NCBI GenBank assembly: GCA_021818945.1 | Contig: JAKASV010000005.1 | Location: 1-57,537 of the forward strand | From: a bacterium | GTDB lineage: Bacteria > Babelota > Babeliae > Babelales > Vermiphilaceae | Direction: 5' to 3' | DNA length: 57,537 bases | In this document: positions 35,849 through 52,555 of the stretch, piece after piece | Position numbering within the stretch: position 1 is the first letter of the stretch | Layout of the letters: each line of letters begins with the position of its first letter | Position numbers and translations under genes: made by a program | Notes under the pieces: model-generated | Seen by the model: only the letters and a program-made list of their open reading frames with translations | What the model was told of the DNA's origin: nothing | The model's database searches: none

Positions 35849-36247
35849 TCATTCAGATTCAAGCTCATGTTCTTCTATATATGCTTGAATTCCATGCTGT
35901 AACGCATAAAGGCCAAGCAATGCACAACGTAAACGGGTAGGACCAAGAGACATGCCAATCAAACCGAGGACAACCTCCTTGTCCATTTTAAGGATCTCAT
36001 GAATTGTTTTACCTTTGCAAACTTCAGTGAACATAGATGCAACAGCCTGACTCAGGATGCAGCCAGATCCAATAAATACAAGAGCAGTTAAGACACCATT
36101 TTGTATTTGTCCTTCAATCTGAATCTGGTCACCACAAGAAGGATTGTACTCAATAGATGAAAAATCCGGCTCCTGCAAGGTCCCAACATTATGGGGATGG
36201 TGATAATGCTCTAATAATTTATCGCGCTTGAACTGTTCTGTATCCAT
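35849..36247 (-). CDS. sufU: Fe-S cluster scaffold, SufU/IscU family
   Basis: The protein has the three cluster-binding cysteines: YNPSCGD, FIGSGCILSQA and TRLRCALLGL. The sulfur source would be SufS (40146-41417) and the acceptor SufBCD (49661-52555). The start at 36247 gives the standard MDTEQFKRDKLLEHYHHPHN; the frame is open 22 codons further up. The gap between the second and third cysteine is about 44 residues, the IscU spacing, and lacks the insertion of Gram-positive SufU; in place of IscU's LPPVKxxC it has LGPTRLRC. The name sufU therefore rests on the SUF context. Confidence 0.85.
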   Translation of the reverse strand: MDTEQFKRDKLLEHYHHPHNVGTLQEPDFSSIEYNPSCGDQIQIEGQIQNGVLTALVFIGSGCILSQAVASMFTEVCKGKTIHEILKMDKEVVLGLIGMSLGPTRLRCALLGLYALQHGIQAYIEEHELESE

Positions 36248-36393
36248 CTCTTTTTTCAAAATTATGCAGGTAGCGTAGTCTAACTTTAAAAAATCTGTGT
36301 CAATATGCACCATACATCAACCAGTAAATAAAACATGTAGACCACAGTATACCGCTAATAAGTCAGAAGTAAAAGAATATATTTTTCCCCCTC

Positions 36394-36421
36394 TTGTATT
36401 TTTTAAAAAGCTCTATATAAT
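36394..36421 (+). promoter_or_regulatory. promoter of the exported HAD gene
   Basis: TTGTAT (36394-36399), a 16-base spacer and a perfect TATAAT (36416-36421) lie about 50 bases before the ATG at 36471, in the divergent gap with sufU. Confidence 0.65.
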
Positions 36422-36470
36422 AGTTTACAAAGAGAAAATTAAATGGAATTGATCATTATGGAGGCTTACT

Positions 36471-49660: not shown

Positions 49661-50446
49661 CTAAAGGCGGGCAATGATCATCGAAGATATACGATCACGG
49701 ATATTACTAGACAGCTTTTCATCAAGACACTCCATGCATGTAGCATGTATGATAAGTCTCTGAGCGACAGACATTTCTATACCACGCATTTGCAAGGCCC
49801 AAAGTTGCTGTTGATCAACATGTCCAATAGCAGCACCATGAGAACAATGTACATCTTTACTCGCTATATCAAAACAGGGTCGTGCCCAAGCTTTAGTAGC
49901 AGGTCCTGAAAAAAACAGGAGAGTTTTTTGTAAAATCTCTACATCATGCAGTAACGGTTTGACAGTGATCATGCCATGGTGGCCAAATTGGGCGCTATCT
50001 TTAAGATACCCCACAATACGAACTACACTTGATGTTACACTCGAGCTGTGTTGCTGCTCTGTTACACATTCAAGACGCTGGTTTGTTTTTAATAAAGGGA
50101 ATATACATATTTTGGCATGAGCATGCTCAAACAAACAGACTGTAAGTCGCTGATGATTTATAGAAATAGATGATCCAATAATTTGTACAAAAGTAATGGA
50201 ACTAGCCATAGCGCATCGTATCAAGAGACTACGATATACATTTTCAGCTATCACTATCACCTGGGAACCGGACCCAACTATGATTTCTAGAGTTTCTATA
50301 CTGCTGGCGTTATCTCGAATAGTAATAGCAATGGCATGCTCAATCATAATACGAATATGTTTATGATGATGAGCATGTTCATTCAAGTCATACAGGTCTT
50401 GACTAGAATGAATATTAATACTATAAGGTTCATGTAGTGTGCTCAT
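49661..50446 (-). CDS. sufD: SufD, short form
   Basis: SufD joins SufB and SufC in the Fe-S assembly complex. The protein has 261 residues against roughly 400-430 in many bacteria. It keeps the beta-helix core and the conserved end: WARPCFDIASKDVHCSHGAAIGHVDQQQLW, followed by MRGIEMSVAQRLI, where the heme- or cluster-related histidine and cysteine of the family occur. The missing part is the N-terminal helical domain. The start is two bases after the sufB stop, so translation is coupled. Despite the short length, the C-terminal match makes the call safe. Confidence 0.88.
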   Translation of the reverse strand: MSTLHEPYSINIHSSQDLYDLNEHAHHHKHIRIMIEHAIAITIRDNASSIETLEIIVGSGSQVIVIAENVYRSLLIRCAMASSITFVQIIGSSISINHQRLTVCLFEHAHAKICIFPLLKTNQRLECVTEQQHSSSVTSSVVRIVGYLKDSAQFGHHGMITVKPLLHDVEILQKTLLFFSGPATKAWARPCFDIASKDVHCSHGAAIGHVDQQQLWALQMRGIEMSVAQRLIIHATCMECLDEKLSSNIRDRISSMIIARL

Positions 50447-50448
50447 TG

Positions 50449-51801
50449 CTATCCTATCGATTGATCCATTTCAAGCATAATTAGCCGATTAAGTTCGATG
50501 GCATATTCCATAGGTAATTCTTGAACAAAAGAACCGACAAACCCATTAATGAGCAATGCACGTGCAACTGAACTTCCTATACCACGACTTGCAAGATAAA
50601 AAAGTTGGTGCTGATCGAACGAACTGACTGAAGCTTCATGACCAACTTCAGCATCAGGATTGCCCACATTGATTGATGGACAAGATGTCGATCGTGAACT
50701 TTCATCAAGCATAAGAGTATCACATTGAATATGAGCTCGCGCTCCATAAGCTGATGGTTCAACGATTATGCTGCCTGCATATGCAGCAATCCCGCCAGAG
50801 CTGCATAACGCTTTTGATACAATGGCAGCACACGTATTAGTTCCACGGTGAATAACTTTTCCTCCAGTATGCTGGTGCTGATTGCAGCCGGCAACGGCCA
50901 AGGACATCATAAAGCCTTTTGCCTGGTCCCCGTGCAGTATCATACAGGGATACTTCATAGTAGCACAACTTCCAAAGTTACCATCGATCCATTCGATATG
51001 AGCATTTGCATGAACAAACGCTCTTTTGGTCACCAGGTTATACACATTTTTAGACCAGTTTTGTATCGTCGTATAACGCACATGAGCTTTATCAAAGACA
51101 ATAATTTCAACAACGGCACTATGCAATGATTGTGTACTATAGAGCGGCGCGCTACATCCTTCAAGATAATGAAGGCTACAGCCTTGGTCAGCAATAATCA
51201 ATGTACGTTCAAATTGACCCATTCGTTCAGCATGCATTCTAAAATACGCCTGAATAGGCAATTCAATAGATACTCCTTTAGGTACATATATAAAACTTCC
51301 CCCACTCCAAACAGCGCTATTGAGAGAAGCAAATTTATTATCATTAATGGGAACTATTGAACCTATATACTGTCGCACGATTTCAGAATAGTTGGCAACA
51401 GCTTCATCTAATGAGCAAAAGATAACACCTTGAGATTCCCATGAAGCTTTAAGATTTTTGTATATTATTTCAGATTCAAATTGCGCACTTACACCAGCCA
51501 ATGTCTGTTGCTCAGCCTGGGGAATCCCAAGTTTATCGAATGTATCTTTTATATACGACGGAACATCGTCCCATGATCGCACCTGGGTATCAAATGGCTT
51601 GCAATAAAAACAGATTTGTGACAAATCTAAAGAAGATAGATCAACACCCCAAGTTGGCATGGGTGCAGACAAAAAAGCGTCATAGGCAGCTAAGCGCCAT
51701 ACCCGCATCCATTCTGGTTCATTTTTGTAAGAACTGATCTGTTCGACAATAGCTCGAGAGATCCCTCGTTCATGAGTACATGAACTATTATTATGATGCA
51801 T
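50449..51801 (-). CDS. sufB: SufB, Fe-S assembly complex core
   Basis: SufB is the scaffold of the SufBCD complex. The roughly 450-residue protein has NEPEWMRVWRLAAYDAF, the WGVDLSSLDLSQICFY segment, SAVWSGGSFIYVPKGVSIELPIQAYFR, the EGCSAPLYSTQSLHSAVVEI core and, at the C-terminus, NVGNPDAEVGHEASVSSFD with DQHQLFYLASRGI. I chose the ATG at 51801 (GGTGG five bases upstream); the frame continues four codons up. It overlaps the end of sufC and is followed by sufD. Confidence 0.96.
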   Translation of the reverse strand: MHHNNSSCTHERGISRAIVEQISSYKNEPEWMRVWRLAAYDAFLSAPMPTWGVDLSSLDLSQICFYCKPFDTQVRSWDDVPSYIKDTFDKLGIPQAEQQTLAGVSAQFESEIIYKNLKASWESQGVIFCSLDEAVANYSEIVRQYIGSIVPINDNKFASLNSAVWSGGSFIYVPKGVSIELPIQAYFRMHAERMGQFERTLIIADQGCSLHYLEGCSAPLYSTQSLHSAVVEIIVFDKAHVRYTTIQNWSKNVYNLVTKRAFVHANAHIEWIDGNFGSCATMKYPCMILHGDQAKGFMMSLAVAGCNQHQHTGGKVIHRGTNTCAAIVSKALCSSGGIAAYAGSIIVEPSAYGARAHIQCDTLMLDESSRSTSCPSINVGNPDAEVGHEASVSSFDQHQLFYLASRGIGSSVARALLINGFVGSFVQELPMEYAIELNRLIMLEMDQSIG

Positions 51802-52555
51802 TATAACCACCAAGCTCTATCTGATCAATTAATGAATAAGTATCAGAGCGAACTATAGTCCCTTCTTGCATAATATGCACATAATCAGGTTTTATATAAT
51901 CCAAAAATCGCTTTTGATGGCTTATAATCAATAGACTTGCCATTGGATTTTCACGGGAAAAAGCAGCTATACTGCCCGCCATATGGGCAAGAGCATCTAT
52001 GTCAAGGCCTGAATCAATTTCATCAAGGATAGAAAACACAGGTTTAAGTATAAGCATCTGCAATAACTCGAGTTTCTTTTTCTCTCCACCAGAAAACCCG
52101 CTATCTAGAGGTCTATGGATCCAAGCCCTACTAATATGCAGAAGGTCTGCGACTTGTTCTATATGAGAACTGAAATTGGTCAATGAAAATGCCTCAACAT
52201 TACGTGCACGCACAGCTTCCTTTAATAGTGCATAAACTGATAACCCTGGAATTTCGACCGGGTTCTGCATGGCCAAAAATAGCCCTTTGCATGCCCGTTC
52301 TTCTATAGACATCTCAATTAAATCAGAACCTAGAAAATACAGAAAACCCTGTACTACTTGGTAACGTAGATGCCCCATGATGGCATAGGCCAACGAACTT
52401 TTGCCTGAACCATTAGGCCCTACAAGAGCATGAACACTTCCGGGTCTAATTTGTAGATTAACTGAATGAATGATGTTTTTTCTCTCAACTGACACGGCAA
52501 GATTATCAATAGTGATAATCGAAGGCTGTCCAGTGAAATTTTGTTCTTGTATCAT
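51791..52555 (-). CDS. sufC: SufC ATPase
   Basis: SufC is the ABC-type ATPase of the SufBCD complex. The 254-residue protein has the P-loop VGPNGSGKSSLAYAIMG, the Q-loop MQNPVEIPGLSV, the signature FSGGEKKKLELLQML, Walker B FSILDEIDSGLDIDAL and the H-loop LIISHQKRFL. All are intact. Its stop overlaps the sufB start. Only about two bases separate the predicted transcription start from the ATG, and no Shine-Dalgarno is present. Confidence 0.96.
   Translation of the reverse strand: MIQEQNFTGQPSIITIDNLAVSVERKNIIHSVNLQIRPGSVHALVGPNGSGKSSLAYAIMGHLRYQVVQGFLYFLGSDLIEMSIEERACKGLFLAMQNPVEIPGLSVYALLKEAVRARNVEAFSLTNFSSHIEQVADLLHISRAWIHRPLDSGFSGGEKKKLELLQMLILKPVFSILDEIDSGLDIDALAHMAGSIAAFSRENPMASLLIISHQKRFLDYIKPDYVHIMQEGTIVRSDTYSLIDQIELGGYNAS

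What the first reader, a model, noticed from the sequence alone, without database searches (positions are those of the whole stretch)
35849..52555. SUF cluster interleaved with exported proteins, including two giant repeat proteins
sufC-sufB-sufD, then 8 kb of two giant exported Sel1-like proteins, then sufS, an exported protein whose start lies inside sufS, a coiled-coil exported protein, and further on sufU. All except the HAD gene are on the same strand. Fe-S machinery is cytosolic, so the inserted genes have no obvious tie to it. Either the unit was split by insertion of lineage-specific genes, or the secreted repeat proteins are co-expressed with iron or oxidative stress via the suf promoter.
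Basis: partly seen in the sequence, partly recalled or inferred. Interest (0 to 1): 0.62.

Follow-up and report, generated by a model that had tools for sequence, protein, structure and literature searches.

The report
Conserved suf locus with inserted genes
A normal set of genes for building iron-sulphur clusters, kept together in related bacteria, has here been pulled apart by two giant genes for exported repeat proteins that also have copies elsewhere in the genome, so the neighbourhood looks like ordinary gene insertion in a parasite-like bacterium.

Summary
In detail: sufC-B-D, two exported ~1,330-aa Sel1/TPR-type proteins, sufS, two orphan exported proteins, a VTT membrane protein, a HAD gene on the other strand, then sufU. 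In relatives of the same order the backbone pilB/gspE-like, sufC-B-D-S, (variable genes), VTT, HAD (opposite strand), (variable genes), sufU, nurA-like, dnaJ recurs. sufD and sufS lie within 60 nt in 16 of 30 relatives where both could be placed; 10 of 30 carry unrelated inserts there, 6 ORFs on each strand. The giants belong to a family of five proteins at three places in this genome, two of them away from suf, with one relative in one other genome of 101. The two proteins after sufS occur in none of 50 relatives. About 44% of neighbourhood ORFs and 39% around atp look exported, so exported neighbours are expected. The D|S boundary is nevertheless split more often than C|B, B|D or atp junctions. 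Co-transcription with suf is possible but untested. Interest is low to moderate.

The parts
51791..52555 (-). sufC, Fe-S assembly ATPase
   Evidence: TIGR01978 above cut-off
50449..51813 (-). sufB, scaffold subunit (overlaps sufC by 23 nt)
   Evidence: TIGR01980 above cut-off; aligns along nearly all its length to solved SufB 5awf_A
49661..50446 (-). sufD, short form (core domain only)
   Evidence: PF01458 E 2.3e-20; aligns to solved SufD over its later part with the CSHGA segment kept
45528..49508 (-). giant exported Sel1/TPR-type protein A (frame open to 49547)
   Evidence: paralogs
41524..45513 (-). giant exported Sel1/TPR-type protein B, tandem paralog of A (25% identity)
40146..41417 (-). 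sufS, cysteine desulfurase
   Evidence: TIGR01979 above cut-off; closest solved chain SufS 5xt5_A
39383..40186 (-). orphan exported protein, start 41 nt inside sufS
   Evidence: 0 of 50 relatives
38226..39305 (-). orphan exported protein, coiled-coil-like
   Evidence: 0 of 50 relatives
37289..37996 (-). VTT-domain membrane protein, conserved neighbour
   Evidence: PF09335; matched in 18 of 42 relatives' loci (some stretches too short to show it)
36471..37310 (+). HAD-family hydrolase with N-terminal hydrophobic segment, conserved neighbour on the opposite strand
   Evidence: PF00702; HAD-family match in 15 of 42 relatives' loci (same caveat)
35849..36313 (-). sufU-like (NifU_N) sulphur transfer or scaffold protein
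   Evidence: PF01592; solved IscU/SufU relatives
34691..35845 (-). nurA-like gene directly after sufU, conserved neighbour
   Evidence: PF09376; directly after sufU in 10 of 10 relatives measured
53991..55151 (-). PilB/GspE-type ATPase upstream, conserved neighbour
   Evidence: upstream of sufC in many relatives

Best explanation
This is an ordinary SUF Fe-S cluster locus whose ancestral order in this order of bacteria was pilB/gspE-like, sufC-B-D-S, variable genes, VTT, HAD (opposite strand), variable genes, sufU, nurA-like, dnaJ. In the window's lineage a tandem pair of giant exported Sel1/TPR-type proteins, members of a family amplified in this genome, came to lie between sufD and sufS, and two orphan exported genes lie after sufS. 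Shown here: the order in relatives, the paralogs elsewhere, the rarity of the giants, the kept key segments of the Fe-S proteins. Inferred: that sufD-sufS adjacency is ancestral, that the insertion does not disturb suf function, that sufS is transcribed either by read-through or from its own promoter in the 106-nt gap, and that the giants are exported solenoid proteins that bind host or envelope partners, as Sel1/TPR proteins of other intracellular bacteria do (known from those families, not tested here).
For: Gene order in 42 relatives' loci. D|S both placed in 30: 16 with a gap of 60 nt or less, 10 with an ORF of 100 aa or more between, 4 with a gap of 72-539 nt without such an ORF. C|B split in 2 of 34, B|D in 1 of 40, sufU|nurA in 0 of 10; atp core junctions in 0 of 147. 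Inserts differ from genome to genome, 6 ORFs co-oriented and 6 counter-oriented, and the split state is scattered on a SufB tree (9 changes, shuffled mean 9.2, weakly resolved). Giants: 5 proteins at 3 places in the own genome and one 909-aa relative in G012. Base rate of exported-like ORFs 181 of 413 in suf loci and 101 of 256 in atp loci; in a cultured Dependentiae 44% of CDS carry a putative signal peptide (PMC6561590, passages). Base composition of the giants equals the surroundings.
Against: The D|S boundary is split more often than its neighbours (10 of 30 against 3 of 74, p 1.7e-4; the rows are related, so p is optimistic), so insertion is not uniform. Long exported proteins stand near suf in several other genomes: 1,310 aa directly after sufD in G040, at least 1,051 aa after sufD in G029 (cut by the contig end), two of about 1,500 aa after sufD in G048, Sel1-type proteins in G026 and G028. 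No terminator-like site separates sufD, the giants and sufS, so co-transcription stays open. Ancestral adjacency is inferred from the majority, not reconstructed on a rooted tree.
Confidence: 0.8

Rival explanations
1. The giants and orphans are true operon members, co-transcribed from the suf promoter so that export of host-directed or stress-protective proteins follows iron limitation or oxidative stress.
For: All genes from sufC to the coiled-coil-like orphan are on one strand; gaps are 113 (152 from the better start), 14 and 106 nt; the orphan after sufS overlaps it and has a Shine-Dalgarno-like GGAG; no terminator-like site on that strand in the gaps. In G040 the 1,310-aa insert overlaps the end of sufD by 4 nt.
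Against: Inserts in relatives point both ways (6 and 6 of 12 ORFs); paralogs of the giants lie beside unrelated genes; the giants are absent from nearly all relatives that keep suf; a perfect TATAAT lies in the gap before sufS, though it has no scored -35 and promoter-like sites are not more frequent than in shuffles (48 against 59.6).
Confidence: 0.12
2. The D|S boundary and the sufS-sufU interval are a true hotspot for genes of host interaction, chosen by selection or by a mechanism of integration.
For: D|S split in 10 of 30 relatives by unrelated genes against 0 of 147 atp junctions and 3 of 74 other suf junctions; long exported proteins near suf in several families.
Against: Exported fraction among D|S insert ORFs is 7 of 12 against 181 of 413 background (p 0.38; the 7 judged from their N-termini); long exported-like proteins 8 in 713 kb of suf loci against 5 in 570 kb of atp loci (the heuristic misses at least the G040 and G001 proteins); no repeats at the insert's edges beyond chance. 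A looser constraint on the place of sufS explains the split rate without a hotspot.
Confidence: 0.2
3. Assembly or gene-calling artefact.
For: The genome is a draft in 61 contigs.
Against: Both giants are single open frames with homologs elsewhere; both flanks keep the conserved order; composition is even.
Confidence: 0.02

Closest known systems
SUF Fe-S cluster assembly system (sufCBDSU type)
   Same: All five genes present; SufB, SufC and SufS above the NCBIfam cut-offs; order C-B-D-S-...-U
   Different: SufD is a short core-only form; sufS and sufU stand apart from sufCBD with unrelated genes between
Secreted Sel1-repeat proteins of intracellular bacteria (LpnE, LceB of Legionella)
   Same: Signal-peptide-like N-terminus, helical-pair solenoid; best PDB sequence match is LpnE 6deh, fold matches include LceB 8sxq and LpnE
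   Different: About four times longer, very degenerate repeats, tandem amplified family nearly private to this genome
Expanded exported repeat-protein families of Dependentiae/Babelota (ankyrin, beta-propeller and others in Babela and Chromulinavorax)
   Same: Many exported lineage-specific repeat proteins in small genomes of intracellular bacteria (PMC4378268, PMC6561590, passages)
   Different: Here Sel1/TPR-type and placed inside a housekeeping locus; term finds for Sel1 and for suf in PMC6561590 and for Fe-S and iron-sulfur in PMC4378268 gave no occurrence

Membership tests
SUF system | SufB, SufC, SufD, SufS present | tested here: met
   SufD scores below the NCBIfam cut-off but keeps the core domain over the Pfam cut-off
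SUF system | Key residues kept | tested here: met
   SufS keeps the cysteine segment RAGLQCAHPL aligned to solved SufS; SufD keeps the CSHGA segment; SufU keeps the CGD and SGC segments. Which residues matter is recalled
SUF system | Works in Fe-S assembly in the cell | not testable with these tools
   needs genetics or biochemistry
Sel1-like repeat proteins | Sel1 repeats (PF08238) | tested here: met
   58.6 and 36.6 bits for the whole proteins, cut-off 30.7; no single repeat reaches it
Sel1-like repeat proteins | alpha/alpha solenoid fold | tested here: inconclusive
   860 residues of giant A modelled almost all helical, mean pLDDT 62.9, pTM 0.40, two rows only; 78 PDB matches at E 0.001 or better, many of them TPR/Sel1 solenoids, with low TM-scores
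Exported proteins | Signal peptide | tested here: inconclusive
   own hydrophobicity and site heuristic only; no signal-peptide predictor here
Dependentiae (Babelota) | Phylogenetic placement | tested here: inconclusive

The most novel reading that the evidence does not exclude
In this order the boundary between sufD and sufS is a recurrent acceptor for large exported proteins of host interaction, so that unrelated lineages have independently tied expression of exported repeat proteins to Fe-S cluster demand.
Probability: 0.1. Interest if true: 0.55.

Novelty: new member of a known kind. Interest (0 to 1): 0.27.

Why it matters
Housekeeping synteny can be followed across a poorly known order of small-genome bacteria and used to place the amplification of exported repeat proteins. 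If the D|S boundary were a true acceptor site it would offer a natural series of independent couplings between Fe-S control and host-directed proteins; the present data mostly speak for ordinary insertion at a loosely constrained boundary.

Tried and rejected
Functional tie of giants to suf: not supported by synteny, orientation or paralog positions. Recent foreign origin: no composition shift, no flanking repeats beyond chance. Hotspot by export: exported fraction of inserts not above background. Promoter scan: no more sites than shuffles, so not decisive. Naming the organism: two scans of genome contigs (one search gave none, one search gave 80 loci, of other phyla such as Chloroflexi), so the phylum stays an inference. 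Homology of the other genomes' long exported suf neighbours to the window's giants: only short weak matches. Large Sel1 proteins near suf: the frames of 800 aa or more with Sel1 matches lie mostly away from suf; besides the window only G026 and G028 (one genus) have one in the suf stretch, and with few such frames this is not distinguishable from chance (rough estimate).

Rows left out: the relative G019 (SufB fragment at a contig edge) was not fetched, so 42 of 43 relatives with SufB were examined; of 42 loci 12 could not be scored for D|S because sufS or sufD was not recognised in the fetched stretch. In G041 sufS lies about 16 kb from sufB with at least four long ORFs on the other strand between; it is not in the 10 of 30. 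The 114-aa insert ORF of L051 may be spurious and is counted. Literature: PMC6561590 and PMC4378268 were seen as passages only; other papers as search listings.

Full report
What is there. The window (contig C44 of a 1.25 Mb, 61-contig genome) carries on the minus strand sufC, sufB, sufD, two giant exported proteins, sufS, two further exported proteins, a VTT membrane protein and sufU, with a HAD gene on the plus strand between VTT and sufU. The protein after sufS starts 41 nt inside sufS with GGAG seven bases ahead.

The Fe-S genes look intact. SufB aligns along nearly its whole length with solved SufB, SufS with solved SufS including the cysteine segment, SufU with IscU/SufU. SufD is a short form with the core domain and the CSHGA segment; short sufD genes are usual in the relatives. 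SufB of the window is on a long branch (1.63 against a median of 0.37).

Synteny. SufB was found in 44 of 51 genomes including the own. I fetched 42 relatives' loci and mapped the window's genes on them. The backbone pilB/gspE-like, sufC-B-D-S, variable genes, VTT, HAD on the other strand, variable genes, sufU, nurA-like, dnaJ on the other strand recurs within the family and in other families of the order. Where sufD and sufS could both be placed (30 loci), 16 have a gap of 60 nt or less (14 of them overlap), 10 have an ORF of at least 100 aa between, and 4 have a gap of 72-539 nt without such an ORF. C|B is split in 2 of 34 (both in one genus), B|D in 1 of 40, sufU|nurA in 0 of 10, and the core junctions of the atp operon in 0 of 147. 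So the boundary before sufS is loose in many lineages: the inserts differ from genome to genome and the split state is scattered on the SufB tree (9 changes in 30 scored rows, shuffled mean 9.2; the tree is weakly resolved). Six insert ORFs point with suf and six against. sufS is present in 50 of 51 genomes, in several of them away from sufB.

The inserts here. Giant A and giant B are tandem paralogs (25% identity). In the own genome three further members lie at two other places: one of 1,581 aa on C13 between a small exported protein and a phosphatase-like gene (named by eye), and two of 1,216 and 1,336 aa in tandem on C39. Among 101 genomes of the order the family profile gives extended matches only in the own genome and in G012, where a single 909-aa member lies some 27 kb from sufB; 20 other genomes give short matches that Sel1/TPR repeats alone can explain. 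The C13 protein looks like a mosaic: its first part is closest to giant A, its last 900 residues to giant B. The two exported proteins after sufS have no relative in 50 genomes. VTT and HAD matches, by contrast, recur in 18 and 15 of the 42 loci.

What the giants are. Pfam sees Sel1 and TPR repeats (58.6 bits Sel1 in A; 36.6 bits Sel1 and 44.1 bits TPR_2 in B). A model of residues 41-900 of giant A, from an alignment of A and B only, is nearly all helical pairs with modest confidence (mean pLDDT 62.9) and matches Sel1 and TPR solenoids, among them LceB and LpnE of Legionella; LpnE is also the best sequence match in the PDB (E 1.9e-6). Binding of host or envelope partners is an inference from those families.

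Base rates. By one heuristic 181 of 413 unlabelled ORFs in the relatives' suf loci and 101 of 256 around atp look exported, close to the 44% of coding sequences reported for Chromulinavorax destructans (PMC6561590, passages). Exported inserts at D|S are 7 of 12, not different from background (p 0.38). Long exported-like proteins are 8 in 713 kb of suf loci and 5 in 570 kb of atp loci, a count that misses at least two inserted proteins. Interleaving with exported genes is therefore expected in such a genome.

Results against this reading. D|S is split significantly more often than other suf junctions (10 of 30 against 3 of 74), and long exported proteins stand next to sufD in G040, G029 and G048 and inside the locus in G026 and G028. 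I read this as loose linkage of sufS in genomes rich in exported genes, but a real preference is not excluded.

Expression. No terminator-like site on the suf strand lies in the three gaps around the giants, and promoter-like sites are not commoner than in shuffles. A TATAAT lies in the 106-nt gap before sufS. Co-transcription is possible and untested; counter-oriented inserts in relatives suggest that sufS can there be expressed without read-through from sufD, which is an inference from position.

Organism. I take it to be a member of the Dependentiae (Babelota): small genome, TLC ATP/ADP transporter in the window, a high exported fraction, and agreement with published descriptions. No call named it.

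Verdict. The finding is real and ordinary in kind: insertion of an amplified exported repeat family into a conserved suf locus, at a boundary that is split repeatedly in this order.

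Noticed in passing
window 49508-45528, 45513-41524, 40186-39383, and 42 suf and 40 atp loci of relatives: Exported-like proteins of this order often have Met right after the signal-peptidase-like site, frequently followed by Asp or Glu (21 of 46): 46 of 339 (13.6%, 7.1 times background) against 6 of 142 internal hydrophobic segments (p 0.002). The site finder is a heuristic; whether the signature is known was not established.
   Followed up: partly
whole genomes of the order: 7 of 51 genomes lack a SufB match (G003, G030, G031, G032, G033, G046, G050; six of them at least 92% complete), yet 6 of these 7 keep a SufS relative: a cysteine desulfurase without the SufBCD scaffold.
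   Followed up: no
L084 7820-12565: The 1,581-aa paralog looks like a mosaic of giant A (first part) and giant B (last part), as if made by recombination in a tandem pair.
   Followed up: partly
L067 3196-14059: In G048 sufD is followed by an exported ankyrin protein and two giant exported proteins with Tectonin and Methyltransf_FA domains; sufS lies elsewhere on the contig.
   Followed up: no
L078: In G012, the only other genome with a giant of this family, no sufD was recognised; a 479-aa gene that looks like an asparaginyl-tRNA synthetase (recalled, not scanned) lies between sufB and sufS.
   Followed up: no
window 5835-7265: TLC-type ATP/ADP transporter, fitting an energy-parasitic life inside a host cell.
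   Followed up: no
window 36471-37310: The HAD hydrolase has an N-terminal hydrophobic segment and HAD-family genes stay on the opposite strand in this neighbourhood in many relatives: a conserved, probably exported phosphatase-like neighbour of suf.
   Followed up: partly
window 50449-51813: The window's SufB sits on an unusually long branch (1.63 against a median of 0.37 in 42 rows).
   Followed up: no
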